Assembly: GCA_001247695.2 (NCBI GenBank)
Contig: LGRX02024683.1
Location: forward strand, 1 to 64,000
Direction: 5' to 3'
Length of the DNA stretch: 64,000 nucleotides
Source of the DNA: Cymbomonas tetramitiformis
Taxonomy: Eukaryota > Chlorophyta > Pyramimonadophyceae > Pyramimonadales > Pyramimonadaceae
The notes beneath the pieces were generated by a model. That model was given only the letters and a program-made list of their open reading frames with translations, was not told where the DNA came from and searched no databases. The stretch's first letter is position 1. Every line of letters begins with the position of its first letter. The position numbers and the translations under genes are program-made. Of this stretch, positions 18,154 through 58,318 are shown piece after piece.

Positions 18154-19480
18154 ATGAGATCGGATCGGGAATTGAACGTTGAGCCATTCTACACATGTGG
18201 GGAGTTTGGGAGTTTTGGGAGTTGGGGAGTTTTACAATGGGAGGCCCTGACCGACGAGCAGGTGTTGCTGATGACTCAGGTGCAGCCCATCTGCAAGTTG
18301 CAGAATGCCACCCTGTATGAGGGTCTGGCGTTGGTGTCGTCTGGTGGTGAGCTTATGCTGTATCGGACAATCCTCATGGACACCGGCGCCAACTGCAACA
18401 TCATCTCCATCGCGGTCGTGAGGCGGCTGGGCCTCACGGTGTACGAGGCCAGCACCGGCGCCAAGGTCACCAGGTGTGACAACAGCCCTACGAAGTTCAC
18501 GCATTACTGCTATGTGGACGTCATACTGGCTGCGGGCACGCCGCACATGACGCTTCACCGGTTGTACGCCTTCGTGACCTTCGAGCCCGAGAACTCTTGG
18601 GATCTGCTGATAGGCACCGGGCCGCTGAAGAGCTCCTTGATGATCGATATCAAGCTTGGAAGTGGCGTGGCAGTGTCACATGCGCCGACGATTCTGGGCA
18701 TGGATGCTCAGGTGGTGCTTCCGTTGGTCGACATGACACCACCCAGGCGTCCCGACCTGCCCAGGCGGGTGGACCCGGCGGTGTGTCTGAAGTCGAAAAT
18801 CTTTGGAGAGGGAATGGAGTGTGAGTGGCTAAAGCACCCACCTCTGAGCACAAGGGAGGAGAGATTTGCTGCTTCTGGGATTCAGCCTGAGCACATCGAT
18901 GACAATGACGAGTCACCATTGGGGTCACCAGCGCCTTCGCCAAGACCTCTTGCTGAGCGCCCACGACCTCGAGCCATCACGCGAGCGGAGCTCGAGGAAA
19001 GATGTCGCCATCGGACGTGTCCCCTTGAAGGCGGCCGAAGGAGTGACCTGGCGTCTCTGGCGCCCGCCGTACAGGCAGCATCGGAGCGCATGCTCGAACA
19101 GTTTTACGAAGAGCCGAACCCTTGAAAGGGTGGGCACGCGAGATGGGTCACTGAGGACCAGGTTGCCGGGGATCGTCCGTCTCTAGACGCCCCTCCCGAC
19201 TACAACTGGGCGAATCAGAGACTGTACCTGGACCGGCACCACATCGCGCGTCTCTGCCGCATCCTCCAGGACCCAGCCCAGGACATGCCAACTAGACCTT
19301 CCCAAGATCATGTCTGCGTGGAATTCGCCCGCTGTCGCGAGCAGAAGTGGGTGACGGTGGACCAGCTGATGCCCCCTAACTAGCTGCACGTGGACCAAAC
19401 GGCTGGATCACGACGAGGAAAAGGACCGCTGGATGCTCGATGGCGACTACATGACGCACGTACCGTCCTCTGCCAGCAAG
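18154..19480 (+). pseudogene. RE-A aspartic protease region
   Basis: The open frame 18154-19122 holds a retropepsin-like domain: YRTILMDTGANCNIISIAVV (Asp-Thr-Gly triad and flanking strands) near residue 70 and WDLLIGTGPLKSSLMID near residue 150. A TGA at 19123 interrupts the frame, which then continues in the same register to 19380 (DYNWANQRLYLDRHHIARLC). It next shifts by +1 in a C-run near 19372 and reads LDHDEEKDRWMLDGDYMTHV up to the CACTA insertion. The reading frame resumes at 34128. The first residues before the protease may not be real coding sequence. Confidence 0.7.
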
Positions 19481-19504
19481 CACACTAGGAAGGATTTCTG
19501 TTAA
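19478..19504 (+). repeat. Left target duplication (AAG) and terminal inverted repeat of the CACTA element
   Basis: AAG (19478-19480) is followed by CACACTAGGAAGGATTTCTG and TTAA. The right end read in reverse is CACAC, five different bases, then AGGATTTCTGTTAA: 19 of 24 positions agree. Confidence 0.8.
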
Positions 19505-19812
19505 AAACTGTTAATGATGTGTTAAAAAATGTTAATCGAGTGTTAAATAGTGTTAATGTGGAAACTGGGTGTTAATCAAGTGTTAATACGCGAAAAATTT
19601 CATAATGGGCTATATTATAGGCGGAAAAGTGTTAATGAGGTGTGAAGAAAGTGTTAAACGTTGGCGAGGGAGTGTTAATGGGACAGTTCAGGAGTGTTAA
19701 CGGAAGGCTGCATCTGTTAATCGCGGTATAATCACGCTGCTGCGAATTATATTGGAGCCAGAACACACGCCTGTTTCGCCGATGCATTTGAAAAGTGTTA
19801 ATACCCAGCGCA
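19505..19812 (+). repeat. Left subterminal GTGTTAA repeats of the CACTA element
   Basis: About a dozen GTGTTAA or TGTTAAT motifs in one orientation over 300 bp. In EnSpm elements such arrays bind the transposase-associated protein. Confidence 0.75.
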
Positions 19813-20409
19813 GCCACCGTGATGTGGGTGTCCTGGCGAGATAATCATTTCAAAATGCAGTCGCCACTGACAACGCCCATACCCATCGACGATCGACAGG
19901 ATCATCTACGGTAGATATAGGTGCATCCGCGAACACCAAACGCATGAAGACCTTATTAAGACCTATCTAGCTACGTACGTAGGATGGAACGATAGTTGGA
20001 CGTAGGTAGCTTGCGAAATCATTTCTGAGCTGACGTTCTGCCCGAGCAGACCAGCATATATAATATATTTGTTACGAGAGAAACCCGAGTCTGTAAAATT
20101 TGTAAGGTGCCAAATCGTTGCACGGTCGCTGTTACGTATATTTTTATCCACACGTTTATAGACTGCAAACCAAAGGGTGGGGTTGCGTGGTGTTCGTTCA
20201 TAACAGATGGATGACCAGTGGAGCGCAAACTTGGCGACTGCTGGAAAGCAACCGCGAACTGCTACTAACGCGGTAAGTGCAGATTGTGGAACAGAATCTT
20301 CGTTTATTTTAAGTGTGAGTAAACTGATGCGGGCGATGTTCAGGCTCCCGGTGGCGCACATCCGGGCGCGGGGTTAGTTGGGCCCGCTAAGGTAAACGCC
20401 GGCACCGGA
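19813..20409. other. CACTA element 5' region, no gene recognised
   Basis: No open frame with a recognisable domain. It might hold the transposon promoter. Confidence 0.35.
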
Positions 20410-21860
20410 GCATTTATGCAAGCCTCTTGTCCCTGTTTTTTTAAGGGTGTTCTTCGTATAAGCCGGAGGTCACGCTGGGGACATACCGTCGCCAGCGTGG
20501 CCTGCTTCTGGTTGGTTGAAGTGTTTCATTTTCGTGTTCACCGGGTTTCATTTTTTACATGTGTTGAAGCCTCTGCGGACCGTGTAGCGCGTGCGCTGAT
20601 CGCCAACGGGCCGGTCGCGCAACGATGCGGCGGTTATGCAAGCCTCTTGTCCCTGTTTTTTTAAGGGTGTTCTTCATATAAGCCGGAGGTCACGCTGGGG
20701 ACATACCGTCGCCAGCGTGGCCTGCTTCTGGTTGGTTGAAGTGTTTCATTTTCGTGTTCACCGGGTTTCATTTTTTTACTGTGTTGAAGCCTCTGCGGAC
20801 CGTGTAGCGCGTGCGCTGATCGCCAACGGGCCGGTCGCGCAACGATGCGGCGGTTATGCAAGCCTCTTGTCCCTGTTTTTTTAAGGGTGTTCTTCATATA
20901 AGCCGGAGGTCACGCTGGGGACATACCGTCGCCAGCGTGGCCTGCTTCTGGTTGGTTGAAGTGTTTCATTTTCGTGTTCACCGGGTTTCATTTTTTAATG
21001 TGTTGAAGCCTCTGCGGACCGTGTAGCGCGTGCGCTGATCGCCAACGGGCCGGTCGCGCAACGATGCGGCGGTTATGCAAGCCTCTTGTCCCTGTGTTTT
21101 TAAGGGTGTTCTTCATATAAGCCGGAGGTCACGCTGGGGACATACCGTCGCCAGCGTGGCCTGCTTCTGGTTGGTTGAAGTGTTTCATTTTCGTGTTCAC
21201 CGGGTTTCATTTTTTTACTGTGTTGAAGCCTCTGCGGACCGTGTAGCGCGTGCGCTGATCGCCAACGGGCCGGTCGCGCAACGATGCGGCGGTTATGCAA
21301 GCCTCTTGTCCCTGTGTTTTTAAGGGTGTTCTTCATATAAGCCGGCGGTCACGCTGGGGACATACCGTCGCCAGCGTGGCCTGCTTCTGGTTGGTTGAAG
21401 TGTTTCATTTTCGTGTTCACCGGGTTTCATTTTTTATGTGTTGAAGCCCCTGCGGACCGTGTAGCGCGTGCGCTGATCGCCAACGGGCCGGTCGCGCAAC
21501 GATGCGGCGGTTATGCAAGCCTCTTGTCCCTGTTTTTTTAAAGGGTGATCTTCATATAAGCCGGAGGTCACGCTGGGGACATACCGTCGCCAGCGTGGTA
21601 TGCTTCTCGTCGTTTTAAGTGTTTCATTTTCGTGTTCACCGGGTTTCATTTTTTTACATGTGTTGAAGCCTCTGCGGACCGTGTAGCACGTGCGCTGATC
21701 GCCAACGGGCCGGTCGCGCGACGATGCGGCGGGTTATGCAAGCCTCTTGTCCCTGTTTTTTTAAAGGGTGATCTTCATATAAGCCGGAGGTCACGCTGGG
21801 GACATACCGTCGCCAGCGGTCGTCTTCTGGATGATGAAGTGCTTCCGGTTGTTTGTTGCG
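20410..21860 (+). repeat. 220-bp tandem satellite, block 1, about 6.5 units
   Basis: Near-identical units begin with ATGCAAGCCTCTTGTCCCTG at about 20416, 20636, 20855, 21075, 21294, 21514 and 21735. Each holds an inverted pair CACGCTGG...CCAGCGTG around ACATACCGTCG, and a GCGCGTGCGCTGATCGCC segment. Open frames across it repeat with the unit and are not genes. Confidence 0.9.
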
Positions 21861-22099
21861 TCCTACTTAGGAAGCTCCATCAGCGACCGCAGCCGAAGCT
21901 GGAGGGGGTGCCTCCGCCCCCCCCGCTGCTGAAGACGCGGCGGCTGCGGCTGGCAGCAAGGTACGCATTGCACCCGCCATTCCCGCTTCCTGCTGCGTTT
22001 TCCCCGCCCCCCCCCTAAATATACACACTTCATTCCCAACGAACGAGTATGCGGTCATCCATCTTGCAGGCCGACCCCCGGTTCTTATTTTGGCTTCCA

Positions 22100-22480
22100 C
22101 CACCGGCTGCCTGTGACGCGTGCCGTGTTGCTCGTGCGCTGCTCGCCAACGGGCCGTGCGCGCCTCGTAGCCGCGGCGTTTTAGCGTTTCACCTCACGCC
22201 CGTGACGTGTACCGTGTTGCTCGTGCGCTGCACGCCCACGGGCCGTGCGCGCAACGGACCCGCGGAATTTAAGCGTTTCACCTCACGGCAAGCTGCGGGT
22301 TATTTCCTCGCGCGAGCGTGCCTCGTCCATATCGTCCCCCGGAGTCCTCCTGTCCGGTTCGGGGTGTGTCCAAAGATGTCCGGTTGCGGCCCGCCGCTCT
22401 AAGTTGAACCGTGGCCGTGCCGTACTCGTACCTCGTCGGTGGCCCGCCAACGGGCCGGGCGCGGAAGGTGGCCGCGGTGT
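22100..22480 (+). repeat. Diverged short repeats related to the satellite
   Basis: Three imperfect copies of a unit with CGTGTTGCTCGTGCGCTGC and GCC(A)ACGGGCCGTGCGCGC, spaced by about 90-200 bp. The GCCAACGGGCC core is shared with the 220-bp unit. Confidence 0.55.
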
Positions 22481-22764
22481 GCGTCCGTTTTGCCTAGCGT
22501 ACCTCTCCGATGTTGCTGATACCATGGTGTCCGCAACCGACACCTAACCTGTGACACAGCGGACCAGTCCTAGGCAGGCATGCTAGCTTAGGGGGCATAT
22601 CGCTCCCATCGTTCCGGTTCTTTTCGTTGTCCAACATGTTTCGGTTTGCGCCACCGTTTGCCGCCGTGTGTGCATCGGGTGGCCGCAATATCCCACACCG
22701 TATATACGCACAGTACACTGATCCAGGTTAATCAACAACCCTGGGTTTGCGGTTTGTTTCCTAG

Positions 22765-23898
22765 CGGGGGAAAAAATTCAAACGGCGCAGAAATCGTTTC
22801 CTTCGGCGCCAGCAGCAAGGAATCACTACTGCGGACAACCGGGATTATGACGAGGGTCTCCAGGAGTATCTGGAAAAACAAATTCGCACCTTGTTCGACG
22901 GCATCCCGTTTTTACGTGCCGTCGCCACGCGCGCGGGGTGTTCCAATGTGGATCCGAAGAATATCATCGAGCCTCAAAATGCCGAACCGGTGAGTGGCGC
23001 GTACGGCGCCGTCACACGAGGTTGCACACTGGACCGCACGGACCTGGTCGTGGTCAAAAGGTTTTGCAAAACCTCGGAGCTACAGCCGCACCCCAAGACC
23101 AACGGAAACCTCCAAAGGAAGGCAGCGCCCACCCAGCCGCCCAAGGAGTTCAAGCGGTGTGCGCAGGAGCTAGTCATGACAAAACTGGCGTCGCAAGCGG
23201 CACCCACTTACGTCGTGCCCTGTACACGATGGGGTGTGGAGACCAAAACTCGGCTAGCGCTGCGGGTCGGGCCAGTTCCGATGCTCGTCATGCCCGATCG
23301 CGGCCGGACGCTATGGGAATTCATGCGGGATCCGCCTGAGGGTGACCTCTCCTTGGAGGTCAAGCTGCTACTTGCCAAGGAGGTGCTGAAGGCGTTTGAG
23401 CAGTTGCACTCCAAGGGTATCGTGCACGGCGACGTCAAGGGTAACAACGTGGTCGTTGCCGAAGCGCTGCAATCACCATATCCCATCACGCTGCGAGTCA
23501 TCGACTTCGGAGTTGGCTGCGTCGATCGAGAAAACCTGAAGTCTGCGCATGACGAGCGTCCTCTCGGTCGAGAGGACCGCCGTTATCTTGCTCCTGAGCA
23601 CCGGGATCACGGCCCAAGCAGGCCAGGAGACATGTGGTCTGTGGGTGGACTCCTGGTCCAGCTCTTCCAGCACCCGCAGGCTGGTGGCGAACGTCACCAA
23701 TGGGACTATATCCTAAGTCAAGCGAAACCGCAGAATGGATTCATGAAGCATGCACTCATGCAGCGCCTGAAGGAATGCTTCAGCGTAGACATGGCCAAGC
23801 GTCCGACAGCCGCGAATCTGCTGCGCACGTTTGACAACACTAGGATCCAGACCTTCGGTGACAAAGGCTTTCCGCCTCGCATTGAGCTGGCTGGGTGA
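22765..23898 (+). CDS. Protein kinase carried by the CACTA element
   Basis: The last exon of a kinase gene. It starts at a strong acceptor, TTTGTTTCCTAG, and runs 377 residues to TGA. Visible kinase elements are a short Gly loop (SGAYGAV), VVVKRF (ATP-binding Lys), an ELVM helix, HGDVKGNNVVV (catalytic loop, Asp present, Arg of HRD replaced by Gly), VIDFGVGC (DFG), YLAPEH (APE-like) and a DMWSVGGLL helix (subdomain IX). All catalytic residues except the HRD Arg are present, so activity is plausible. The N-terminus has a basic run, KKFKRRRNRFLRR, that could be a nuclear localisation signal. It lies between two satellite blocks upstream of the transposase gene in the same orientation. It may be a captured host gene or a regular gene of this CACTA family; upstream exons are not resolved. 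Confidence 0.8.
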   Translation, partial: RGKKFKRRRNRFLRRQQQGITTADNRDYDEGLQEYLEKQIRTLFDGIPFLRAVATRAGCSNVDPKNIIEPQNAEPVSGAYGAVTRGCTLDRTDLVVVKRFCKTSELQPHPKTNGNLQRKAAPTQPPKEFKRCAQELVMTKLASQAAPTYVVPCTRWGVETKTRLALRVGPVPMLVMPDRGRTLWEFMRDPPEGDLSLEVKLLLAKEVLKAFEQLHSKGIVHGDVKGNNVVVAEALQSPYPITLRVIDFGVGCVDRENLKSAHDERPLGREDRRYLAPEHRDHGPSRPGDMWSVGGLLVQLFQHPQAGGERHQWDYILSQAKPQNGFMKHALMQRLKECFSVDMAKRPTAANLLRTFDNTRIQTFGDKGFPPRIELAG

Positions 23899-24035
23899 TT
23901 TCCAATAGGGCCGACATGTGAACTTGACAAATGTATACATTTAAATATAGCGCCGACATTGCCGTAAACAAATCGGTCCATGTATGTATTCCTATCGCAT
24001 CACGCATAACGCGCTAGACACACACATGCATTTGC

Positions 24036-24770
24036 CTACCGGAGGTCACGCTGGGGGACATACCGTCGCCAGCTTGGCCTGCTTCCGGTTGGTTGAAGTG
24101 TTTCATTTTCGTGTTCACCGGGTTTCATTTTTTTAATGTGTTGAAGCCTCTGCGGACCGTGTAGCGCGTGCGCTGATCGCCAACGGGCCGGTCGCGCAAC
24201 GATGCGGCGGTTATGCAAGCCTCTTGTCCCTGTTTTTTTAAGGGTGATCTTCATATAAGCCGGAGGTCACGCTGGGGACATACCGTCGCCAGCGTGGTAT
24301 GCTTCTCGTCGTTTGAAGTCTTTCATTTTTCGTGTTCACCGGGTTGCATTTTTTAATGTGTTGAAGCCTCTGCGGACCGTGTAGCGCGTGCGCTGATCGC
24401 CAACGGGCCGGTCGCGCAACGATGCGGCGGTTATGCAAGCCTCTTGTCCCTGTTTTTTTAAGGGTGATCTTCATATAAGCCGGAGGTCACGCTGGGGACA
24501 TACCGTCGCCAGCGTGGTATGCTTCTCGTCGTTTGAAGTCTTTCATTTTTCGTGTTCACCGGGTTGCATTTTTTAATGTGTTGAAGCCTCTGCGGACCGT
24601 GTAGCGCGTGCGCTGATCGCCAACGGGCCGGTCGCGCAACGATGCGGCGGTTATGCAAGCCTCTTGAGCTCTTGTCCCTGTTTTTTTAGAGGGTGATCTT
24701 CATATAAGCCGGAGGTCACGCTGGGGACATACCGTCGCCAGCGTGGTATGCTTCTCGTCGTTTGAAGTGT
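24036..24770 (+). repeat. 220-bp tandem satellite, block 2, about 3.3 units
   Basis: The same unit as at 20410-21860, in the same orientation, starting inside the unit at CCGGAGGTCACGCTGGGG. The kinase gene lies between the two blocks. Confidence 0.9.
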
Positions 24771-25260
24771 TTTCGTTTCGTGTTCACCTACACATACATG
24801 CATTTGCCTACCGGATGGTGACCTTTTGCAAGGCTAGTGTCCGCATAGTAGTTACAGTCTACCATTGTGGCGTGCCGGATATAGCGGACAACTCCTCTGC
24901 CAACCCCTCATCAGTGGTTACCTATCTAGCTGTAACAAAACACTTTTATATGAATAATATTGATCTCCATTTGCCTGGAGGCCGTGTGCTGCCTACTCGA
25001 TAATGTTCCGGGAGCGATTGATGTCTTGCGCGCATCGTAATATCACTCTGCTCACGCGCGGACCGTGTAGCACGTCCGCGTGCTTTGAATGCAACCGCCG
25101 TTTACAATCGGCGCTCACTCCTTTCCGTGAAATCACCTAGAGCTCGACGATGGGGCACGCTCAAGCGAAGTATCGGCGGTAGAGGGGGCGGGGGCCGGGT
25201 TTTGTATACAGAAACGCAAACGGAAAAGTCATGAGTTTTGGCATTCAACCGTTTCCTTAG
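24771..25260. other. CACTA internal spacer
   Basis: No convincing gene; probably 3' flank of the kinase gene and intron or promoter of the next gene. It ends in the splice acceptor CCGTTTCCTTAG. Confidence 0.4.
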
Positions 25261-27784
25261 GCGCAACAAATCTCCCCGTCGGTCTTCTGGAGAATTATAG
25301 GCAGGCCATCAAGCAAGTACCGACTGGGCTCGTTTTGGCCACCGGCGCGTTTGCCCATAACGGCAAATGCCCCGAGTGGCAGGCGGCCAACTACACGGTC
25401 TTACGCGATACCATATACGCGAACGCATCTGGGTTCCACGTTTTGAGGACCATGCCAGAAAGCCAGGGGAAGAACGAGGCGAAGGAGCAGGTGATCGCGC
25501 AGCTAGAGATTTGGCTGAAACAAAACCTGAAAAATCATAACGTCCTAACCTGGGTTAGGCACTGCTCATCCCAGGGCAAGTGCATCGCGGATTCCCCCGA
25601 CCCGGCGTCCCCATGTGAAAAGTGCGAACCCAAGATTTTACAGCACCTGACAACCGTCTACCGCTTCGTGCAAACCAAGAACAGTCAGTTGGGGCATACC
25701 ACCCTCGCGTTCCCTACCGAGAAGGAGATCGCTGCTATCAAGGCCCGGTTCCCCGAATTGTGGAAGAAGGCATGTCAGGGGACCGGCCCGAACCTGCCCG
25801 TCAATAGCGAACCGCCCCCTCCTCCAACAGCGCCAGCCCCGGCGTCACGGAGTACAGCCCTAGTTCATGTCACGAACGACGCGCCCCCACCTACTGCTGT
25901 GCGAGCCCTAGCGCCACCGAGCACTGCCCCGTCTGAAGCCGTGCAGGCCGCGGCCCCACGTCCAACAGGGCCAGCAAGGCCGGCGGTGTTTATCGGAAAT
26001 GTCACACAGGAACTTCGTGCACACTGTCCATGGTTCATGGTGGACACGGTTTCCCGGACGGTACATGTGTCACCAGCCCCCCGGTACCAGGCCAATGTCA
26101 ATCCCGAGTACCCGTGGATGCAGCACGTCGCAGACCTGTTGACGCTGCTGTGGCCAGCGGAAACCGGGACGTTGGCCCAGGCGCCGGCGAGTACGCTATT
26201 GCCGCCCCCTCCAGCCAGGGCGCCCCCACAGATTGCCACCGTTGATCTGGCATTCCCACCCCAAGAACCTCCCTCGATTCCCAGCTTGGTGCAGGCCGCG
26301 TCCACCGTGCAATCCTGGCAACCGACCGCCAAGGAAGGGGTCCAGCAACAGCCGCAGCGCGCCGTTGAAGCAGCAAAGCAGGGTGTCCTTGCACGGGACT
26401 GCCTGCAATCTGCCCCTCCCGCGGAACCCGCGGTGTCCCCGCTGAGCCACGGTCCGGTGGTTTTCCAAGAGAAGCCTTCCGACAGTGGCCCACAGGCCCC
26501 CGCTAACAACCCATCACCTGTACAGACCCCAGAGTTTGAGCGCAGCAGGAGAGTCACGATGCAGAGGAACAAAGACAGGATGAAACCTATGCTCGAAGCG
26601 GCAAGACAGTTGCAAATAAACGCCCTGAGCGCGGCCGACTCCACGCCGGCAGCAGGGCTGAAATTGCTGAACGAAGTATCCGACGAGCGTCTTCTGGAGC
26701 ACATGCAACGTCTGGCCGCGGATGGCAAGCTCCAAGCAATTACTTACAAGAACGTGCTGGAAACATTGCCGCAGCCTTACACATTCGGCGCTTACAAGCA
26801 CTTGCCACCGGTGCTGGAGAAACCGATGAACTCAGCGCTCACGGTTGCCTTGAAGACACGGGTGGCGGCCAACGCTGCCATGTCCCTCCTCCAGCAGGCA
26901 ATCAGTAAAAAGCGCAACGCCCCCCCTACAGTCCCTCCGCGACAGAGCAAGGCGCGGACGGCGTCTTCTGCAGGGGCCACACGCACAGCCAGCGCCCCTC
27001 CAGCCGACAGTCGCCAGGTGCAGGTGTCCGGGCAAGGCATGCCCGAGCTGATTGAGAACATACGGCTGAAGGCCCTCGAACGCGCTAAGAAGAACCGTGT
27101 TAAGGACCTCCCCAAAGATGCTGATGTAACGAAGTGGACCAAGGAGATGAAGAAGTCCTTGGACGGGAAGTGTAAAGGGATCGCGTGGGCGGACAACGTG
27201 TACGGAGCAATGTTCGAAATGGAGCACGCGGGCGGTGTCCTCTCCGGCTCAATTGGCCGATCAGTGCATGCCCTCACCAACGACGAATGGTCAAGCGACC
27301 ATGATTACTACTTCATGGTGGCGGGGCACGATGACGGCAGCCACCTCCCCGTAAAAGTAGCCGCGGTGTACATGGAGTTCGCTCCCTTCCATGCCGAGTT
27401 TGACTCTCGCCCTGAGAACAAGAATCAGCTTGCCAAGATGCACGTGCGCACCGTGCCGAATGTGCACGTTTCCGAGGAGGGGCTCGTGTACATCACCTCT
27501 ACCGGAGAAGCGTTGCCTATGGACAAGCTGCCGGAGCTGCTAAAGAAGCGTTCCACGGTCCCGGATGCCTTGCGCCTCGACCTGCCGGCCGAGGCTGCTT
27601 CGAGCGGCCAACGACGACAGCCGCGGACTGCAACCAGGTGCGTGACTCACTCTCTTTATTAGTGTGTTGGCAATTCCTCGAATCAAGTCGGCCTACAGGT
27701 GTTTTAGGGTGAGAGTGGGTGGGGGGGCTGATACAAGATGTGCCCCACGCTTTCCTTCGCAGGCTTGCAGCCGAGGATGTGTGA
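25261..27784 (+). CDS. Unknown 800-residue protein of the CACTA element
   Basis: Exon 25261-27637 begins after a splice acceptor; a 125-bp GT-AG intron follows, then a short last exon (27763-27784) that closes the frame with LAAEDV. The N-terminal about 170 residues contain two Cys pairs (CIADSPDPASPCEKC), the middle about 400 residues are Pro/Ala-rich low complexity, and the C-terminal about 200 residues are compact and conserved-looking (GIAWADNVYGAMFEMEHAGG, SSDHDYYFMVAGHDD). I recognise no family. By position it could be the accessory DNA-binding protein (TnpA role) of the transposon, but this is only inference. Upstream exons may exist. Confidence 0.6.
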
Positions 27785-33292: not shown

Positions 33293-33460
33293 CGCAAGCT
33301 ACCTCATGAGCTCCGCGCAGCAATCGAAGGAGGACACCGAACGCCAGCGCAGCTTCATCAGCTCCGTCCAATTGCTCTGTGTAGCTAGCGAATGCCTGCT
33401 TGCCACATGCAACGAATCTGTTCCAGTGGTACTTTTAGTAGCATCGGCAGTCCCTCTTAG

Positions 33461-37763: not shown

Positions 37764-37766
37764 ATT

Positions 37767-50944: not shown

Positions 50945-51203
50945 ACGATGTTACGGTCATAACCCTTGGACCGAGTGCAACCGATCTACGGCAAGCAGAG
51001 TTTCGAAGGAGAAGACGAAGACTGAAGACCTGCCTTAGATATCGGTTGTGTGCGGTTGGGTGAATCCGGGATGAGCGTTGGCAGCGTGATCCTTGGTGAA
51101 GCCCTTCTGCTACGCTGATGAGCAGAGGAATCACGAGACCCCTGTACGCTATTGTATGTGTGATTATGCTCTAGTCGTGGTTTCAGGGGAAAGTCCACTC
51201 CTA

Positions 51204-51216
51204 ACGGGGGGAGAGT
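51204..51216 (+). other. Polypurine tract of RE-B
   Basis: ACGGGGGGAGAGT abuts the 3' LTR start TGTGCC. An almost identical junction sits at 17699-17717. Confidence 0.8.
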
Positions 51217-51533
51217 TGTGCCAGGAGGCACGACGTACCTGCTGAGACACCCATAGTAGGGGGGGTCTGATTTCGATGAGAATAAGAGTAGCGAGCTATT
51301 AGGGAAATTAGTGAGTGGATGTGACATTGCCTGAGCGAACAGTTGGGGAAAATAATATGTGAGCTCAGAGGAGAGAATAAAGAGAGGTAACAGAGTTGGT
51401 CTCTCAGACTTGGACAGCAAATGATATAACTCTTGCTGTCTGGGTTTATGTTAAATAGTATATCTGAATATATGATATGATTCCTCAAGATAATAGAGGA
51501 TAATAGTCTACTCCTGGGAATTCCCCTGGGACA
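51217..51533 (+). repeat. 3' LTR of RE-B
   Basis: 317 bp, two differences from the 5' copy, followed by the target duplication AAGGA. Confidence 0.9.
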
Positions 51534-51538
51534 AAGGA

Positions 51539-53081
51539 GGAGCACTGGGAGGAAATGCGAAATGTTCTTCGCAGGTGCAAGACTACTTTTGCCAACAGTC
51601 CTCACGATCTGACAGGCTACAAGGGCAAGGCGGAGCACAACATGTTCTCCATTCCTTTCATAGACGAATCCAAGGCCGCCTACCAGAGACCCAGGAAGTA
51701 CAGCCCGGGCGAGCAGGAAATCATCGATATTCACTGCAAGGAACTTTTGGAGTATGGCTTCATAGAGCCTGCAGCCAAGCATTGCAGGCATGCGAGTAAC
51801 GTCGTCGTGGCTGGCAAGAAGGATCATGAGACTGGCCTGTGGACCCAGACGAGATTCTGCGTGGATCTCAGGGGTGTCAACCGGCACTCCCTCAAAGACA
51901 ATACGCTGCCACATCGACCAGAGGAGCTCTACCAGAAGGTGGCGAAGGCCAAGTTCAAGACCACGCTGGATGCCACCAAAGCCTTCCACCAGATTCCCAT
52001 GGCCACGGAAGAGGACAGGAGCAAGACGGCGTTCTGGTGGAAGAATCAGCTGTACCAGTACACCTCGATGCCTTTTGGGGCAGCTGGAGCCACTTCTGCG
52101 TTTGTGAGAATCATGGACTACGAGTTACGTCACTTGCAGCATTGTACAGTGGCATACGTCGACGACGTAGTGGTCTACACGGATTCCACGCCTGAGCAGC
52201 ATCTGAAGGACGTTGAGGACGTGTTGCGCACCTTGGGGGACGCTGGCATCCGATTGCATGCAGGCAAGAGTACCTTTGGTGCAGCCACGGTGGACTTTCT
52301 GGGCTACCGCATTGGTCATAACTCCATTGGCGCGCAAGAAGCTAAATGCAAGGCCATCCAGGAGCTTCCAAGCCCCCAGGACAAGACTGGGCTCCGCTCG
52401 ATCTTGGGCATGATGAACTACTACAAGGGCCTGGTGGGTGAGCCAGGGGGGCCAAACTACTCTGAGATGGCCCGCCCTCTCAATGACCTGCTCAAGAAGG
52501 AGATCACTGACATCAAGGGAGCTTGGGGGAAGGAGCAAGATCAAGCACTTCAAGACCTGAAGGATGCCCTCTGTTCTGGGAGATGTCTGAGGCCTATCGA
52601 TTATGATAGACCCCTCATATTGTACACCGATTGGAGCACCTATGGCATTGGCACAGTGTTGGGCCAGAAGGACGACGATGGGAAGGAGTACATCTGCATG
52701 GCAATCAGCCGATCCCTGAGTAAGACGGAGAAACAGTACGCCAGCTTCAAAGGGGAGATGCTCGCAGTGGTGTGGGCAGTGCGCACGCTGAGGCAGTACT
52801 TGCATGGCGTTCACTTCACGCTGGTGACCGACCACTCACCGCTCACCACCCTGATGGAGAAGGCCGATCTCCAAGGGCAACACCTACGCTGGGCAATCAG
52901 TTTGCAGGAGTTCGACTTCACGGTGCAGTATCGCCCAGGAGCCAAGAACAGCAACGCTGACGTGCCGTCTCGCTATCCACTACCGTCCACGACAGACGAG
53001 ACTGGGGCGAGGCATGAGAGGGAGAAAGGTGACTGCGTTTCACGCAGGCGTGGGGGAAGTTCACACGAAGGACTTCTGTGA
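51539..53081 (+). CDS. RE-A reverse transcriptase and RNase H (continues from 37446)
   Basis: RT motifs: LEYGFIEPAAKHCRHASNVV, RFCVDLRGVNRHSLKDN, TTLDATKAFHQIPM (Asp), MPFGAAGATSAFVR, VAYVDDVVVYTD (YVDD) and DFLGYRIGHNS. RNase H: LILYTDWSTYGIGTVL (Asp), KGEMLAVVWAV (Glu), FTLVTDHSPLTTLM (Asp) and NSNADVPSRYPL (Asp). All catalytic acids are present. Near 53040 coding moves +1 into the methyltransferase frame, so the last 25 residues before the stop at 53081 are probably out of frame. Confidence 0.85.
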
Positions 53082-54120
53082 CCACTTGTGCTTTATGTTG
53101 GCTGGAGATGCTTCCCCAGGGGAAGAGGCCACGCCAGAGGTGCAGGTCGCCAACTACTGCAGGATGGCTGCCATGGAGCAGCTGGGCACGGGACCAGTGC
53201 ATCGTTTATTCGACTTACACCACCAGGAGGAATTGGAGTGCAATCACGGGGACATGTTTGATACTGACTTACCCGAGCTGGTGACCGACTCTGGGAGGCT
53301 AGCCAGAGCAGCTTGGAAGGCGCTGAGCTTGGTGAGGCCTACGCGAGGCACGCACGGCGAGGGAAGCCCCGCGGTGTACAGCAATGAGTACTTTGAAGGC
53401 GAGCGCATCTTGAAGCCTGAGAAGGTGGACACTAGGGTGCTGGGCAGGCAGTTCTTCTCGCAAGCTCGGGAGGAAGGTGTGGTGTGCTACGAGCCATGTG
53501 GAGGCCTCTGTGCTGGCCTAGAGATGTTGCTCCGCAGTGGGATGAAGGTGGATCGCTACCTGTATCAGGACATATCCCCGAGCAGTCGGACAGTTGCCAG
53601 GGCCAGGTGCACGGCGTTGCTAAGACTCCGATATCCTGACCTCATTCCGCCCTGTGCGATAGAGTTTGGGGCTCTACCCCAAGATCTGCACGACACCACC
53701 AGTGCCGACTTCATACGAGCAGGAGCCCTTCAAGGACGCCAGTGGGTCATGGTATGTGGGTTCCCATGCCAGGATCTCTCCACTGCTGGAACACTCACAG
53801 GCCTGGATGGCAGGCACACCAAATTATTTTATGAAGTGGTTCGGCTTCTATCCACACTGCAGCAGCTGCAGTAGCAGAGGCCTCCAGGCTATATCCTGGA
53901 GAACGTTTCCCCGTTGTCGCACAGACCCGGGACCAAGATCAGGGACCAGGTGTTCCCGTACATTGCCAGCGTCATTGGCCGACCAGTGTCCTTTGATGCA
54001 GCACAAGCAGGCGCTTACGCACATCGATTGCGGGCGTATTGGAGCAACTTGTTCCAGATCCACCAGTTTCGCTCCGTCATGAGCAAGGTGGCGAGACCAG
54101 AAGGACGAATTGTATCGTCA
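53014..54120 (+). pseudogene. RE-A DNMT3-like cytosine-5 methyltransferase domain with in-frame TAG
   Basis: After about 150 residues of linker the domain shows YEPCGGLCAGLEMLLRSGMK (motif I region), VDRYLYQDISP, VMVCGFPCQDLSTAG (motif IV, Pro-Cys), HTKLFYEVVRLL, then after a TAG at 53872-53874 GYILENVSPLSHRPG (motif VI ENV) and YAHRLRAYWSNL (motif VIII-like). The strings GFPCQDLS, KLFYEVVRLL and AHRLRAYWSN parallel GSPCNDLS, RLFFEFYRLL and AHRARYFWGN of DNMT3 enzymes. It lies between RNase H and integrase of the same polyprotein. The TAG stands in CAG-TAG-CAG, a context like leaky viral stops, but inside a fold it is more likely a nonsense mutation. Confidence 0.75.
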
Positions 54121-56961
54121 ATCCTATGCAAGGGCTGGCATCCCAGGCCGGTGATAAGAACAGACCGCGCGCCTCACTACGCGGTGAACGTGGTGGGAGA
54201 ACCGCTGAGGGCACTTCCCACCATCATGGCAACGCAAGGGTCGAGAGCGTTCAGAAGAGCAAGGATGGGCACCGTGGTGCGCAACCAGGACGATGAAGAC
54301 GCCGAGGAAGAATCTCGAGAAGTGAACCTCGACGAGAAGGCGCGAGCCATGGGCTACAGCGCAAGTGAGCTACGCATGGCCGATGGGCTGAACGACGTGG
54401 AATTGGCAAGCATTCTGGGCCTGGCCATGGATCGCAGGGCAATGGAACTGCTCATGTCGGTCGCAGAAGCGAGCAGGAAGGGCCTCCCTCATAGCGAGGA
54501 GTCCCCAGAGGCAGAGAATTCCCCAGGACAGCCCATCGCTGTAGACAACAACTGGGCAGACCACGCGAGGTCGGACCTTCAGCAGAGGCAAGCTTTGCTG
54601 GCGGAATGGGTTGAGAATTCGAATGCATATACTCAGCAGGTGGCGAAGACCATGACTCACCGTGACTGGGAAGAGAAGCTGCAGGTAATGTGCTCGCAAG
54701 GGCAGAAAGGTGCAGAAGGAATTGGGGCTCAGCGACAGAAGGCTGGAACCAAGAAGAAGAAGAAGAAGGGGTGGCAGCTCTACGCCATTGAGCGGTATCG
54801 TCAGAGGCACGAGAGTCACTTCGTGAAGGAGGGCGCAACTCCAGCAGCGCGCGTGGATGTGCCTGCTTGGAGTCCGCCTGCCAAAGATTCAGAGATGAGA
54901 CTCCCCAGGTTGGCGTGCACCACCAGATTCGAGGACTTGATGGCCAGTGTGGCCGAGCAACAGGTAGACCGTGACAAGCATCGAGATGTACACAACGATG
55001 CATGGTGCCTCAGATGGTTGAAGTCCAATGGCAGCGTGAGGTTGCCAGAGGATGGAGTTCGTCGTGTGAGGAGGCGCGCAGCACGACATCGATGGGATGA
55101 GGCTACGGACGAGATCTACATGATCACGCTGTCGGGCAAGGAGGTGAGAATACCTAAGCCTGCTGACCGTCTTGCATTGGTCAAGGAGTACCATTCCAGA
55201 ACTGGCCATTGGGGCATAAGGCGTGCGCAGCATCTCCTGTGGCAGCGCCATTGGTGGGCCGATTTGAAGAAGGACGTGGAGGCTGTGGTCACTCAGTGTG
55301 AGACCTGTCAGCGCGTGAAAACTCATTATGCGAGAGAGGAGGCATGTTTATCCCCCCTCGAGATCGTGTCGTTCATGTATCGTTGGTCGCTGGATTTGGC
55401 ATGGCCTTCGAGGAGACAGACCAAGGCTGGCAACAACAGGGTGCTTATCATGACTGAGCACTACACCAGATTCATAGTCTGTGTACCCATTCCCGACAAG
55501 GAGGCGAGGACCATCGCAGCGGCATTTCGCAGTCATGTCCTGGCTGTGTTTGGTGCGCCAGCAGAGTGCTTGGTGGATGGAGGCAAGGAGTTCGAGGGCG
55601 AGTTCAAGCAGCTATGCAGAGACTGCCTGATCGACCGACGAGTCACCTCACCAGACTCACCAGAAGGCAATGGGCTGACTGAGCGAGTGGTGCGCACAAT
55701 GAAGTTTTGCTTCAAGAAGCTTGCCTTGGAGAAGGGTCTCGATTATGAGTGGGATGAGCAGCTCTGGCCGCTAGTGCTGAGTTATAATGCAGCACGCCAG
55801 GAGTCCACGGGGGTGGCGCCGTTCACCCTGTTGTTTGCCCAAGAGGCAGTGGTGCCGCCAGATTTGAAGCAGGCACCCAGCATAGATTTCGGTGCTGAGG
55901 TCGAAGATGAGAAGGATGCCAGAGTCAAGGACCTCCTCCAGAGAGCACAGGTGGTGAGGCGACTGATGGTGCACGCTGGTTGCAGCCTGGAGGTCGCACA
56001 GCATCGTGATACATTACATTATGAAGGGAGAAGGGGTGGGGGCTATGATGAGCCTAGGCCACACCAGTTTAAGGTGGGCGATTTCGTCTACATCAGACAG
56101 AAGCCTCGCAGCGGCATGGAAGTCGCGACCAAGTCCGCCATCTTGAAGCTGGTTAAGATACAGCGGGATGGTGTCGTGGTGCTTGAGGACGCCACCAAGT
56201 TAAAAGAGAAGAGCACTGTGCAGAGCATCGCGCCATGTCACCTACAGGTGAAGGACCAGTATGACTGCAGTGCAGCCGTGCCCAGCAGACACCTTGCATG
56301 TGAAGTGTGCAGGAAGACGGACGGAGAAGCAGAAATGTTGTTATGCGACGCGTGCAACAAGGGGTACCATTTATGGTGTCTTACCCCGGCATTGAATGAG
56401 GTACCAGAGGGCGAGTGGTTATGTCCTGGGTGCTTAGGCACGAGGGTGCAAGCCGCCAATGCTGAGGTACAAGCCCAGGAAACCAAGAGCTCTTGGGCCC
56501 TGGAGGACCGATTGGGAATTAAAGAACAACAGCTGAACGAGAAGCTGTCCTCGGACATGCGCCTGCTTCCAGCAGACGTGGGTCCTCGTCGTGTGGTGAA
56601 GGGAGGCAAGTCGCAGCCATGGCATGCCGTCTCGTCCAGGGACATGCTGTTGGATGAGGAGGACATGTTTCTTCACATGCCAGATCAGATTGATTGGGGC
56701 AGACAGGACAAGCTCTCTGAGGCCGTGCAGATCTTCATGCCAGGGCACTGGAATGAGGGGCATCGCACGGTGCTGAGCAAGAAATATCGGGAACAGAAGG
56801 CAATGGCAAGGCAGCTGAGGGATGCACCTCTTGTGCCTGCTTTGGCTGAAGAAGAAGTTGAAAAACGAGGAGAATTGAGACATATGACCAAGGCTCAGGT
56901 GCGAGAAGCTAGCGCACTGCAGTGGGGCTTGAGCTGGTCATCACAGTGCCCTCCGAGGTGA
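54121..56961 (+). CDS. RE-A integrase with C-terminal PHD finger
   Basis: The frame continues from the methyltransferase. After a charged linker with KKKKKKGWQ comes the integrase: HSRTGHWGIRRAQH and CETCQRVK (HHCC), RWSLDLAWPSRRQ (Asp), ECLVDGGKEFEGEFKQL (Asp) and PEGNGLTERVVRTMKF (Glu), then APFTLLFAQEAVVPPDL and an SH3-like C-terminal part (FKVGDFVYIRQK). At 56290-56440 a canonical C4HC3 PHD finger follows: CEVCRKTDG, EMLLCDACNKGYHLWC and GEWLCPGC. It could read histone H3 tails and steer integration, as chromodomains do in chromoviruses. A tail of about 170 residues runs to the stop at 56961; the last 13 residues overlap the next frame. Confidence 0.85.
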   Translation: MLCKGWHPRPVIRTDRAPHYAVNVVGEPLRALPTIMATQGSRAFRRARMGTVVRNQDDEDAEEESREVNLDEKARAMGYSASELRMADGLNDVELASILGLAMDRRAMELLMSVAEASRKGLPHSEESPEAENSPGQPIAVDNNWADHARSDLQQRQALLAEWVENSNAYTQQVAKTMTHRDWEEKLQVMCSQGQKGAEGIGAQRQKAGTKKKKKKGWQLYAIERYRQRHESHFVKEGATPAARVDVPAWSPPAKDSEMRLPRLACTTRFEDLMASVAEQQVDRDKHRDVHNDAWCLRWLKSNGSVRLPEDGVRRVRRRAARHRWDEATDEIYMITLSGKEVRIPKPADRLALVKEYHSRTGHWGIRRAQHLLWQRHWWADLKKDVEAVVTQCETCQRVKTHYAREEACLSPLEIVSFMYRWSLDLAWPSRRQTKAGNNRVLIMTEHYTRFIVCVPIPDKEARTIAAAFRSHVLAVFGAPAECLVDGGKEFEGEFKQLCRDCLIDRRVTSPDSPEGNGLTERVVRTMKFCFKKLALEKGLDYEWDEQLWPLVLSYNAARQESTGVAPFTLLFAQEAVVPPDLKQAPSIDFGAEVEDEKDARVKDLLQRAQVVRRLMVHAGCSLEVAQHRDTLHYEGRRGGGYDEPRPHQFKVGDFVYIRQKPRSGMEVATKSAILKLVKIQRDGVVVLEDATKLKEKSTVQSIAPCHLQVKDQYDCSAAVPSRHLACEVCRKTDGEAEMLLCDACNKGYHLWCLTPALNEVPEGEWLCPGCLGTRVQAANAEVQAQETKSSWALEDRLGIKEQQLNEKLSSDMRLLPADVGPRRVVKGGKSQPWHAVSSRDMLLDEEDMFLHMPDQIDWGRQDKLSEAVQIFMPGHWNEGHRTVLSKKYREQKAMARQLRDAPLVPALAEEEVEKRGELRHMTKAQVREASALQWGLSWSSQCPPR

Positions 56962-57536
56962 GGCGTTTGGCGACAGAGGTGGACTGGAAGTCCATCGATG
57001 GCGTGTGGGACCCATGGGCAGGTACTGGGGTCATCAGTGAGGTGATGGTGGAGCAATGGCCGCAGTTGAGATTTATGAATAATGATTGGAACTCTCAGTT
57101 GGGTTGGTCTGAGGCGCATGCCGCACTTCAGCCAGGTAACTATCGCATATGGAAGGAGAAGTATGGTGTCTGTGACGCAGTGGTGACTTCACCTTGGTTT
57201 GCAGCGCTGGATATCGCGTTTCCATTGGCAGTGATGGCCAGTCGTGTGGTGGCATGTGTCCACGTTCCATCTTACTACTTGACAGACATGACCGAGAGCA
57301 GGGCTGCGTACTTCAGACGATTGAGTCAGACGGGACGCTTGCATGTGATTGGGCATCTGGAACATGGACCTATTGGCCGCAGGTGTATGTGGGTCTTGGT
57401 ATTCAAGAATCCGCTGGTCAGAGCCAGGATGTTACAGGGTGGAGAAGGTGAAGGCATTGGTATGTTCACTTTCAGTTTGGGCAAGTTCATGGCAGATGGT
57501 GATACGACCCAGTATGCTGAACAAGCCCATATTTGA
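56922..57536 (+). CDS. RE-A N6-methyltransferase-like domain
   Basis: It is entered by a -1 shift from the PHD frame around GTGGGGCTTGAG (56922). Visible features are VWDPWAGTGVISEVM (motif I-like DPxxGxG), FMNNDWNSQ, CDAVVTSPWFAALDIAFPLA (motif IV-like, SPWF in place of DPPY) and VVACVHVPSYYLTDM, GRRCMWVLVFKN at the end. The pattern matches adenine-N6/amino methyltransferase folds. The changed motif IV leaves catalysis in doubt. It is the last gene of RE-A; a polypurine tract follows 27 bp after the stop. Confidence 0.6.
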   Translation: MGLELVITVPSEVRRLATEVDWKSIDGVWDPWAGTGVISEVMVEQWPQLRFMNNDWNSQLGWSEAHAALQPGNYRIWKEKYGVCDAVVTSPWFAALDIAFPLAVMASRVVACVHVPSYYLTDMTESRAAYFRRLSQTGRLHVIGHLEHGPIGRRCMWVLVFKNPLVRARMLQGGEGEGIGMFTFSLGKFMADGDTTQYAEQAHI

Positions 57537-57563
57537 GTCTGTGCTACTGCACGCAGCAGCTAC

Positions 57564-57573
57564 AGATGGGGGA
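57564..57573 (+). other. Polypurine tract of RE-A
   Basis: AGATGGGGGA directly before the LTR start TGTTGGAAATC. Confidence 0.7.
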
Positions 57574-58318
57574 TGTTGGAAATCTGGGCTTGCATGAAAG
57601 AGCTTAGCGTTCGATCTCAGAATATCAGAATTTTAAAAATTTTGTAGCTCTACGATCTTGTGCTGTGTTGAGAATTGCTTGAACAGTTACCGGCACCAGT
57701 GAATGTTAATGACGAACTTATGACCAGCCGCGAGTGTTAAGGTTGCTCGATTCCGAGAAGATTCGTACCATCATACACACGCGTTTGCGACAGCTGTAAC
57801 AAACGCCGGCTTCTCATGGTACCGCGCCGGGTTTGTCCAGCTGGTGACACGCGTGACAGAGGTGACAGTGTGACAGGCTTTGCTAAGATGACCGCCTGAG
57901 AGATACAGACCTGCCAGAGAAGATATGGTCATTATCGGGTGACCAGGGAATGATAAGATGAAGATGGCAGTGACTCCTTTGCCACTGACGTGTCAGTCAG
58001 AATGTGGTAAACGGTAACATTGTTAGAGCTGGCATGGAATAATGACTTTCCATTGGCCAGATGAAGATTTGAGGGCTAGAACCCGTTACAGTTTTGGGAA
58101 ATGTGACAGAGCATTGAGATATAAGTAAACTCAGACCATAGGTCAGGGTAGTGGACTCATTATTGTTTTGCTTCGCAAGTACTAGGTGGCTGTTCGCGTG
58201 CCGGTGCTAGAGTGCTAAGACAGTTCTGCTCACAGCTTTTGTGCACAATAATTCGTATTTTGTGGTTATTATACCAAGTTTGATGAATATGTTTTACTGC
58301 TGTTTTCATACTTTTTCA
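57574..58318 (+). repeat. 3' LTR of RE-A
   Basis: 745 bp from TGTTGGAAATC to ACTTTTTCA, with TG...CA ends. A TATA-like GAGATATAAG lies near 58114. No matching 5' LTR occurs upstream of 18154. Confidence 0.65.

What the first reader, a model, noticed from the sequence alone, without database searches (positions are those of the whole stretch)
18154..58318. Two nested retrotransposons, each with a C5-type plus an N6-type DNA methyltransferase domain
RE-A carries a DNMT3-like domain (between RNase H and integrase) and a terminal N6-like domain. RE-B carries a Dam-like domain (between RNase H and integrase) and a terminal C5-like domain. The families and their positions are swapped, so the pairing appears to have arisen twice. 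Both also carry a histone reader (PHD in RE-A, chromodomain in RE-B). This suggests retroelements that write cytosine and perhaps adenine methylation on their own or target DNA while reading chromatin. Cytosine methyltransferases in algal and dinoflagellate retrotransposons are known from the literature; the C5 plus N6 pairing is, to my knowledge, not a standard description.
Basis: partly seen in the sequence, partly recalled or inferred. Interest (0 to 1): 0.92.

Follow-up and report, generated by a model that had tools for sequence, protein, structure and literature searches.

The report
Retrotransposons carrying paired DNA methyltransferases
Two unrelated families of jumping genes in a green alga each build two DNA-marking enzymes into their copying machinery, one that marks cytosine and one that looks like an adenine (or other amino-group) marker, next to a part that probably reads chromatin.

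Summary
The window lies in an 852-Mb genome matching the prasinophyte alga Cymbomonas tetramitiformis. The observation largely holds.

RE-B (37447-51533) is a chromodomain Gypsy element with 317-bp LTRs (2 differences) and an AAGGA target duplication. It carries a phage-type Dam between RNase H and integrase and a compact phage-type C5 methyltransferase after the chromodomain. Ten of 16 related proteins keep both.

RE-A (about 18.2-58.5 kb) is a separate Gypsy lineage with a DNMT3-like C5 domain, a PHD finger and a terminal amino-methyltransferase-like domain. Ten genome copies, chosen for their long frames, carry these in one 2398-2405-aa frame, and both methyltransferase-type domains look constrained.

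Caveats: RE-A's terminal domain rests on motifs only; profile searches missed it and two AlphaFold models failed. RE-A here is broken and holds two insertions. RE-B's Dam here reads SPPH, not NPPY/F: a minority form (180 SPPH-type against 3,649 canonical genome sites). No activity was tested.

C5 enzymes in Gypsy, DIRS and LINE elements and Dam in DIRS are published. Eight searches of an open-access library showed no element with both.

The parts
18241..58544 (+). RE-A, broken 5'-truncated Gypsy element, interrupted by a DNA-transposon-like insert and by RE-B
   Evidence: tblastn of relative P0159 and of C1224 ORF1/ORF2 maps to 18241-19483, 34128-37447 and 51507-57527; 3' repeats 57573-58544
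18247..18804 (+). RE-A ORF1 part with aspartic-protease-like stretch
   Evidence: 58% identical to residues 877-1062 of ORF1 of copy C1224; PF13650 E 0.0055, below cut-off
19484..34127 (.). DNA-transposon-like insert in RE-A (boundaries approximate)
   Evidence: break in P0159 alignment; inverted ends sharing AGGATTTCTGTTAA; weak tnp2 and DUF4218 matches below cut-off
37447..37763 (+). RE-B 5' LTR
   Evidence: 317 bp, 2 differences to 3' LTR, TG...CA
51217..51533 (+). RE-B 3' LTR
37442..37446 (.). RE-B target site duplication AAGGA (second copy 51534-51538)
40504..43290 (+). RE-B gag-like ORF with CCHC knuckle
   Evidence: PF00098 8.2e-5
43291..49773 (+). RE-B pol frame: protease, RT, RNase H, Dam, integrase
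   Evidence: Pfam
47944..48426 (+). RE-B Dam-like domain; FDVDA at 48007, motif IV VWCSPPH at 48103-48123
   Evidence: PF05869, phrog_111, phage Dam, positions
49667..50944 (+). RE-B chromodomain plus C5 frame
   Evidence: PF00385 3.9e-7
50288..50932 (+). RE-B compact C5 methyltransferase; FSGTGS from 50303, SPPCTQYS 50474-50500, ENP 50600-50614
   Evidence: phrog_757 1.3e-15; phage C5 methylases; profile to DNMT2 1.7e-6 and DNMT1
51539..53078 (+). RE-A RT and RNase H
   Evidence: PF00078, PF17917
53400..54100 (+). RE-A DNMT3-like C5 domain (approximate), in-frame TAG at 53872; CGG 53488, PCQ 53746, ENV 53890
   Evidence: PF00145 4.8e-7; relative matches DNMT3; positions
55159..55662 (+). RE-A integrase (H2C2 and rve)
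   Evidence: residues 429-596 of frame 53875-56958
56299..56433 (+). RE-A PHD finger
   Evidence: PF00628 2.1e-11
56913..57533 (+). RE-A terminal amino-methyltransferase-like domain; DPWAGTG from 57006, TSPWF in 57180-57200
   Evidence: motifs; 77% identical over 201 aa to copy C1224; identity as methyltransferase not confirmed by any profile
57573..57799 (+). RE-A repeat B1
   Evidence: 227 bp, 5 differences to B2
58318..58544 (+). RE-A repeat B2, 3' end of RE-A
   Evidence: arrangement

Best explanation
Two independent Ty3/Gypsy lineages of Cymbomonas tetramitiformis each acquired a C5 DNA methyltransferase and a second amino-methyltransferase-type domain inside their Pol polyprotein, beside a chromatin reader. 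Shown by sequence: the domains, their fusion in single long frames, many copies, constraint on RE-A's pair, phage-type relatives of RE-B's pair, DNMT3-type C5 in RE-A. Inferred: cut from Pol and packaged with RT and integrase, the enzymes methylate the element's own double-stranded cDNA before or at integration. The cDNA then carries 5mC (and possibly 6mA or 4mC), so it is spared by nucleases or silencing aimed at unmodified DNA, or sets its own chromatin state where it lands. The PHD or chromodomain would dock the integration complex on marked nucleosomes. Confidence: domain pairing in both families 0.85; RE-A's terminal domain truly an amino-methyltransferase 0.65; self-modification of cDNA as the main role 0.45.
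For: Pairing: 10 of 16 proteins found with the RE-B Dam region also match the C5 domain, two of them in part. RE-A: at least 50 of the 150 places scored lie in open frames of 2395-2405 codons; 10 of these were fetched and all 10 read as one frame of 2398-2405 aa. Two scanned by Pfam show RT, RNase H, C5, H2C2, rve, PHD; the other eight are 95.3-99.8% identical to one of them, and TSPWF is near the end of all 10. Constraint in RE-A: pair L033/L038 dN/dS 0.013 for C5 and 0 for the terminal domain (dS 0.31), 0.047 for RT-RNase H, 0.375 for the N-terminal region. Recent spread: copy C1224 has identical terminal repeats (384 and 227 bp); RE-B here has 2 LTR differences in 317 bp. Canonical Dam motif IV pattern at 3,649 sites, reversed control 0. 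Separate lineages: RT tree. Precedent: DNMT3 retroelements, with CG methylation de novo shown for some and cDNA self-methylation proposed (PMC5890265, abstract and sections 6, 9, 11). CpG observed/expected 0.67-0.78 in four RE-A/RE-B stretches, 0.94-1.04 in three other window stretches, as past CpG methylation could leave; coding composition confounds this.
Against: No activity, expression or methylation map was seen. RE-A's terminal domain matched no methyltransferase profile; both AlphaFold models were poor and Foldseek on the second gave nothing below E 0.17 (some O-methyltransferases among the 50 rows shown, E 0.31 or worse). 8 of 19 aligned RE-B Dam domains lack NPPY/F, and the window's SPPH lineage has many near-identical copies, so canonical adenine methylation is not needed by every successful sublineage. 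In the youngest RE-A pairs C5 dN/dS is 0.46 and 0.19, on few changes. The published SymbioLINE enzyme did not methylate DNA in yeast, and retroelements without methyltransferases also move in such genomes (PMC5890265, section 11).
Confidence: 0.6

Rival explanations
1. Anti-restriction armour: the paired marks protect cDNA from nucleases of algal DNA viruses or rival elements that cut DNA lacking 5mC or 6mA. RE-B's enzymes would have been captured for this from phage- or virus-like donors.
For: Both RE-B enzymes have phage-type relatives; the Cymbomonas genome holds a giant virus and many Polinton-like viruses (PMC10675990, abstract text and passages); chloroviruses carry both kinds of enzyme with nucleases (recalled). 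An antiviral role for retrotransposon methylases was proposed (PMC6338049, passages).
Against: No viral nuclease or donor was identified; in the two phage neighbourhoods looked at the C5 gene had no annotated Dam nearby; RE-A's C5 is DNMT3-like.
Confidence: 0.25
2. Local silencing or targeting: reader plus writers mark chromatin at the insertion site, so insertions become quiet and tolerated; cDNA is not the main substrate.
For: PHD or chromodomain in the same element; a histone-read-DNA-write chromodomain enzyme is described in bdelloids (PMC8885841, passages).
Against: No chromatin data; Pol parts act mainly in particles and the integration complex (general knowledge).
Confidence: 0.2
3. Some of the second domains are kept for folding or DNA binding and not for catalysis, as reported for the inactive adenine-methylase domain of certain DIRS1-type elements.
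For: Motif IV SPPH, SPPC or SLSS in 6 of 19 RE-B rows and altered or missing in 2 more; TSPWF is unusual; inactive domain in ALOG-bearing DIRS1-type elements (PMC3537659, passages).
Against: NPPY/F in 11 of 19 rows, five of them near-copies, and the canonical pattern at 3,649 genome sites; dN of 0 to 0.004 in RE-A's terminal domain in the four within-subfamily pairs.
Confidence: 0.3
4. RE-A's terminal domain is not a DNA methyltransferase but a look-alike or another Rossmann-type enzyme.
For: No profile or structure match.
Against: Order TVP..V, DPWAGTG, NND, TSPWF, VVACVHVP fits an amino-methyltransferase (sequences; reading of the motifs recalled); helices and strands of the low-confidence model alternate as expected, which is weak.
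Confidence: 0.3

Closest known systems
KnitGypsy-Dnmt3 of Klebsormidium nitens (de Mendoza et al. 2018, PMC5890265)
   Same: Gypsy Pol with DNMT3-type domain; DIRS-like repeat arrangement with Gypsy domains (section 9 and Fig. 4 legend); RE-A copies show A-coding-B-A-B
   Different: RE-A adds a PHD finger and a terminal amino-methyltransferase-like domain; 'PHD' does not occur in that paper's text and adenine methylases are mentioned only for DIRS in the passages seen.
SymbioDIRS-Dnmt3 and SymbioLINE-Dnmt of Symbiodinium (PMC5890265)
   Same: retroelements with C5 methyltransferase
   Different: other element classes; RE-A and RE-B have a DDE-type integrase and 4- and 5-bp target duplications
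DNMT3 in LTR Copia and DIRS elements (PMC12344493, passages)
   Same: C5 enzyme in LTR elements
   Different: no second methyltransferase mentioned in the passages seen
DIRS-group Dam domains (cited in PMC6338049 and PMC5890265)
   Same: retroelement-encoded Dam-like domain
   Different: RE-B is a Gypsy element with chromodomain and also carries C5; a DIRS1-type domain is reported inactive (PMC3537659, passages), 11 of 19 RE-B rows keep NPPY/F
Chlamyvir-related chromoviruses in Cymbomonas (PMC10675990, passages)
   Same: Gypsy with chromodomain in the same genome
   Different: 'methyltransferase' occurs 0 times in that text
Compact phage and haloarchaeal-virus C5 methylases (e.g. Haloferax tailed virus 1)
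   Same: 33.7% identical over 70% of the query, a C5 domain of RE-B relative P0115
   Different: separate phage genes
Bdelloid N4CMT (PMC8885841, passages)
   Same: captured amino-methyltransferase joined to a chromodomain
   Different: host gene, not a retroelement; single enzyme

Membership tests
Ty3/Gypsy LTR retrotransposons | RT-RNase H-integrase order with rve-type integrase | tested here: met
Ty3/Gypsy LTR retrotransposons | 4-6 bp target duplication | tested here: met
   RE-B AAGGA; RE-A copies TGAA, GCAA, GCGT, read by eye at 3 of 3 copies with both flanks
Ty3/Gypsy LTR retrotransposons | one LTR at each end | tested here: inconclusive
   RE-B met. RE-A has A1 ... B1-A2-B2 in 3 of 4 copies; in the fourth (C2807) B2 was not found and the 5' end is off the contig
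KnitGypsy-Dnmt3 group | DNMT3-type C5 inside Gypsy Pol | tested here: met
KnitGypsy-Dnmt3 group | common descent with K. nitens elements | not testable with these tools
   no hit is named as K. nitens; metagenomic P0167 shares RT clade and C5
DIRS retroelements | tyrosine recombinase | tested here: not met
   not listed for the RE-A and RE-B frames scanned
Chromoviruses (RE-B) | C-terminal chromodomain after integrase | tested here: met
   PF00385 in window and 3 of 3 relatives scanned
Dam family PF05869 (RE-B) | score above curated cut-off 28.1 | tested here: inconclusive
   window 23.1, P0115 21.9, P0128 27.2 not met; P0127 36.4 met; precomputed PF05869 on 12 of 16 proteins
Dam family PF05869 (RE-B) | catalytic (D/N/S)PP(Y/F/W) | tested here: not met
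   window copy SPPH; 11 of 19 rows NPPY/F
C5 DNA methyltransferases (RE-B) | PC and ENV/ENP catalytic motifs | tested here: met
   window SPPC, ENP; ENP or ETP in 42 of 42 rows and the SPPC pattern in 39 of 42, rows chosen from 105 matches
C5 DNA methyltransferases, DNMT3 type (RE-A) | closest solved structures are DNMT3 | tested here: met
   24 best of 30 hits, weak
N6-adenine methyltransferases (RE-A terminal domain) | profile or fold match | tested here: not met
   the fold test used a poor model
N6-adenine methyltransferases (RE-A terminal domain) | FxGxG-like motif I and (D/N/S)PP(Y/F/W) motif IV | tested here: inconclusive
   DPWAGTG present; TSPWF has W for the second P
Any DNA methyltransferase | enzymatic activity on DNA | not testable with these tools
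   bench test needed

The most novel reading that the evidence does not exclude
Dual-base epigenetic retroelements: at least two Gypsy lineages evolved independently to stamp both a cytosine and an adenine (or N4-cytosine) mark on their cDNA while reading histones, making each retroelement a self-contained chromatin read-write machine, probably in thousands of copies and perhaps shaping the whole host methylome.
Probability: 0.35. Interest if true: 0.92.

Novelty: new variant of a known kind. Interest (0 to 1): 0.78.

Why it matters
Retroelements with one captured C5 methyltransferase were already a surprise. Two unrelated lineages in one alga, each with two different methyltransferase-type domains and a chromatin reader, and with many long conserved copies, point to selection for paired marks on retroelement DNA. 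The genome was sequenced by nanopore (PMC10675990, abstract text), so if raw signals were kept, 5mC and 6mA on young copies could be read and the self-methylation idea tested. The sequences also offer compact phage-type C5 and Dam enzymes inside a eukaryotic polyprotein.

Tried and rejected
Tried without result: viral contigs and genome-contig scans for relatives of P0128, P0131, RE-A's terminal domain and alignment A3 (a few stretches matched a pattern, none was a relative). Rfam and tRNA scans: nothing. PDB by single sequence for RE-B C5 and Dam: nothing, and one chance row. AlphaFold on RE-A's terminal domain with 5 and with 18 rows: too poor to use; Foldseek on the second not significant and not used. 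A count of RE-A's motif by DNA pattern and a search with the window's own RE-A terminal domain did not complete.

Considered and rejected: chance overlap of frames (many long single frames hold the domains); a 5' terminal repeat of RE-A near 18 kb (none seen); a stop-codon reassignment behind the TAG at 53872 (relatives have sense codons there); DIRS identity of RE-A. That P0080, listed under Genlisea aurea, comes from that plant is doubtful; contamination is suspected, not tested. Nucleotide differences among ten RE-B loci were not used as a selection test because those loci were ranked by protein identity.

Limits on counts: the genome search scores only the best 150 candidates, and some contigs may be redundant copies in the assembly. 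The 10 RE-A copies were chosen for their long frames, so 'all 10 intact' is by choice. The 3,649 canonical-motif sites were not each checked to lie in RE-B; at least 9 of the first 100 listed coincide with RE-B places. The SPPH-type pattern also admits T, R, C or W at its first residue. In one search the 40 loci were located by the motif itself. The 7 dN/dS pairs of 10 copies are not independent, and C5, integrase and PHD are saturated between subfamilies. In the RT tree P0158, given as the 26th row, had no RT match and dropped out. The C5 tree used 42 of 105 matches and A2 used 38 sequences.


Full report
Where it is. Window proteins match Cymbomonas tetramitiformis proteins closely (P0129 93% over 89% of a 1028-aa frame, P0133 96% over 59%), and the window is C15971:1-64000 of an 851.7-Mb assembly. 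That species' long-read assembly is reported as 68.3% interspersed repeats, LTR elements 15.3% (PMC10675990, passages).

RE-B. The element spans 37447-51533: 317-bp LTRs with 2 differences, TG...CA ends and target duplication AAGGA. Frames: a gag-like ORF with CCHC knuckle; a 2160-aa pol frame with protease, RT, RNase H, a Dam-like domain, H2C2 and rve; then an overlapping frame with a weak SH3-like match, a chromodomain and a C5-like domain. The Dam-like domain scores 23.1 bits against PF05869 (cut-off 28.1) in the window; of three relatives scanned only P0127 passes (36.4; P0128 27.2, P0115 21.9). It hits phrog_111 and phage Dam genes by tblastn with the P0127 domain (best 7e-7). The C5-like domain is missed by Pfam in the window copy (E 0.093) and below cut-off in P0127 and P0128. 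It hits phrog_757 at 1.3e-15; the P0115 domain hits phage and haloarchaeal-virus C5 methylases (11 records, 28-34% identity); a 38-row profile hits DNMT2 and DNMT1 structures (best 1.7e-6). Of 16 proteins found with the Dam region, 10 also match C5 in the same protein, two of them in part; the other six show no C5 match. Six of the ten are from metagenome contigs and four are NCBI gene models. More remote chromodomain proteins with a C5 match come from metagenomes of unknown organism (P0027, P0031, P0033).

RE-B motif IV. Of 19 aligned Dam domains 11 read NPPY or NPPF (five are near-copies), 2 SPPH (window, P0120), 1 SPPC, 3 SLSS, 1 is altered and 1 has a gap. In the genome, V-W-C-N-P-P-Y/F is encoded at 3,649 sites (reversed control 0) and an SPPH-type pattern at 180 (control 1). 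The window's Dam domain is matched at 100% over its full length by 54 of 150 places scored, itself included, so the SPPH lineage has spread recently. Either SPPH keeps some function or catalysis is dispensable. Between ten proteins (45 pairs) the Dam domain is 43-75% identical: below the rve domain in each pair, usually below RT, and above the neighbouring linker (18-44%) in each pair, closest in P0127/P0128 (49 against 44). It is conserved as a domain.

RE-A. Alignment with relatives and genome copies shows three blocks, about 18.24-19.48, 34.13-37.45 and 51.54-58.54 kb, broken by an insert of about 14.6 kb with inverted ends and by RE-B. Its gag part (ORF1 residues 1-876) gave no match at E 1e-6 and no second copy of its A repeat appeared in the self-comparison. 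In the last block the frame shifts near 53.03 kb, has a TAG at 53872 and shifts again near 56.94 kb; this copy is broken. Domains: RT-RNase H, C5 (PF00145 4.8e-7), H2C2 and rve, PHD (2.1e-11), and the terminal domain.

RE-A family. A search with the terminal domain of P0131 scored 150 of 3,139 candidates; at least 50 of the 150 lie in frames of 2395-2405 codons and a few contain stops. Ten copies chosen for long frames were fetched; each reads as one frame of 2398-2405 aa, in two subfamilies 64% identical. Two scanned with Pfam show RT, RNase H, C5, H2C2, rve and PHD. An upstream frame of 2174 aa (C1224) or 2100 aa (C9638) overlaps it. Terminal repeats are A1-ORFs-B1-A2-B2 in 3 of 4 copies examined: in C1224 A (384 bp) and B (227 bp) are identical; in C10161 A is 99.7% and B 100%; in C9638 A (428 bp) is 96.3% and B 99.6%. 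In C2807 B2 was not found and the 5' end is off the contig. Duplications TGAA, GCAA and GCGT can be read at the three complete copies, as a DDE integrase would leave. De Mendoza and colleagues describe this repeat arrangement with Gypsy domains for K. nitens (PMC5890265, section 9).

RE-A C5. The C5 region of P0131 has as its 24 best PDB matches DNMT3A, 3B or 3C chains (of 30; E 0.0006 to 0.06), then HaeIII, a chain named only DNA methyltransferase, and HhaI. A metagenomic protein of unknown organism, P0167, shares the RT clade and has RT-RNase H-C5 with 36% identity over 305 aa of C5, which suggests that this C5 capture is older than the Cymbomonas families.

RE-A terminal domain. It carries TVP..V, DPWAGTG, NND, TSPWF and VVACVHVP in that order, which by recalled knowledge fits an amino-methyltransferase. 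No methyltransferase profile, PDB sequence or phage match was found; AlphaFold failed twice and Foldseek on the second model gave nothing significant. SPPY occurs in N4-cytosine enzymes (PMC8885841, passages), so the base is open.

Selection (7 pairs). In L033/L038 (dS 0.18-0.33 by domain) dN/dS is 0.013 in C5, 0 in the terminal domain, 0.023 in PHD, 0.047 in RT-RNase H, 0.112 in integrase and 0.375 in the N-terminal region; L033/L040 is similar (C5 0.015, terminal 0.010). Between subfamilies (3 pairs) the terminal domain gives 0.07-0.08, like RT; C5, integrase and PHD are saturated. In the youngest pairs C5 is 0.46 and 0.19 and the terminal domain 0 and 0.09, on few changes. Both domains look maintained, the terminal one more steadily.

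Two origins. In a tree of 25 RT sequences RE-A with P0167, and RE-B, are separate clades (100/99 each) with other Gypsy rows between them on the unrooted tree. The C5 enzymes are of different kinds. In the C5 tree of the RE-B type (42 rows) the chromodomain proteins need three label changes, so a single origin is neither shown nor excluded. P0080 (Dam, retropepsin-like stretch and C5 in one 719-aa protein) shows Dam and C5 together in a third arrangement.

How it may work. Pol-encoded enzymes travel with RT and integrase; the likeliest substrate is the element's own double-stranded cDNA, as proposed for DNMT3 retroelements, for which CG methylation de novo was shown (SymbioLINE failed in yeast; PMC5890265, abstract and section 11). 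RE-A and RE-B stretches show CpG observed/expected 0.67-0.78, three other window stretches 0.94-1.04, a weak sign of past CpG methylation. Whether the second domain adds 6mA, 4mC or nothing is open.

Literature. Eight searches (listings with abstract starts) and passages or sections of nine papers showed C5 in Gypsy, DIRS, LINE and Copia elements, Dam in DIRS elements, and a review that names DAM- and DCM-encoding Ty3/Gypsy and DIRS elements together without describing one with both in the passages seen (PMC6338049). Two reviews I wished to check are not held, and most subscription papers are outside the library, so an earlier description remains possible. The 2025 survey of eukaryotic 6mA has 0 occurrences of Cymbomonas and DIRS (PMC12695648).

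Noticed in passing
window about 13235-17239, minus strand: A third Gypsy element, fragmented (protease and RT frame; integrase-like blocks), grouping with P0171 in the RT tree on a long branch.
   Followed up: partly
window 19484-34127: Large DNA-transposon-like insert with inverted ends, weak tnp2/DUF4218 matches, a protein-kinase ORF (22765-23895, Pkinase 1.3e-17) and two blocks of 220-bp tandem repeats (about 20.3-21.8 and 23.9-24.8 kb).
   Followed up: partly
window 31565-32063: Near-perfect nested inverted repeat (173-bp arms 99% and 76-bp arms 100% complementary), a large hairpin.
   Followed up: no
window 11575-12170 and 59590-60179: Direct repeat of about 0.6 kb, 83% identical, 48 kb apart, on either side of the whole nest.
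   Followed up: no
window 63001-63999 and 7845-8948: Mutator-like transposase (3.8e-36) and a weak phage-integrase-like match (0.00078, below cut-off).
   Followed up: no
window 47106-47559: The RE-B linker before Dam holds a 60-bp tandem repeat with a 20-residue unit.
   Followed up: no
protein P0080: 719-aa protein labelled Genlisea aurea with Dam (NPPF), retropepsin-like stretch and C5: a third Dam-plus-C5 arrangement, perhaps from a contaminating microbe.
   Followed up: partly
protein P0167: Metagenomic Gypsy protein with RT-RNase H-DNMT3-like C5, sister to RE-A in the RT tree.
   Followed up: partly
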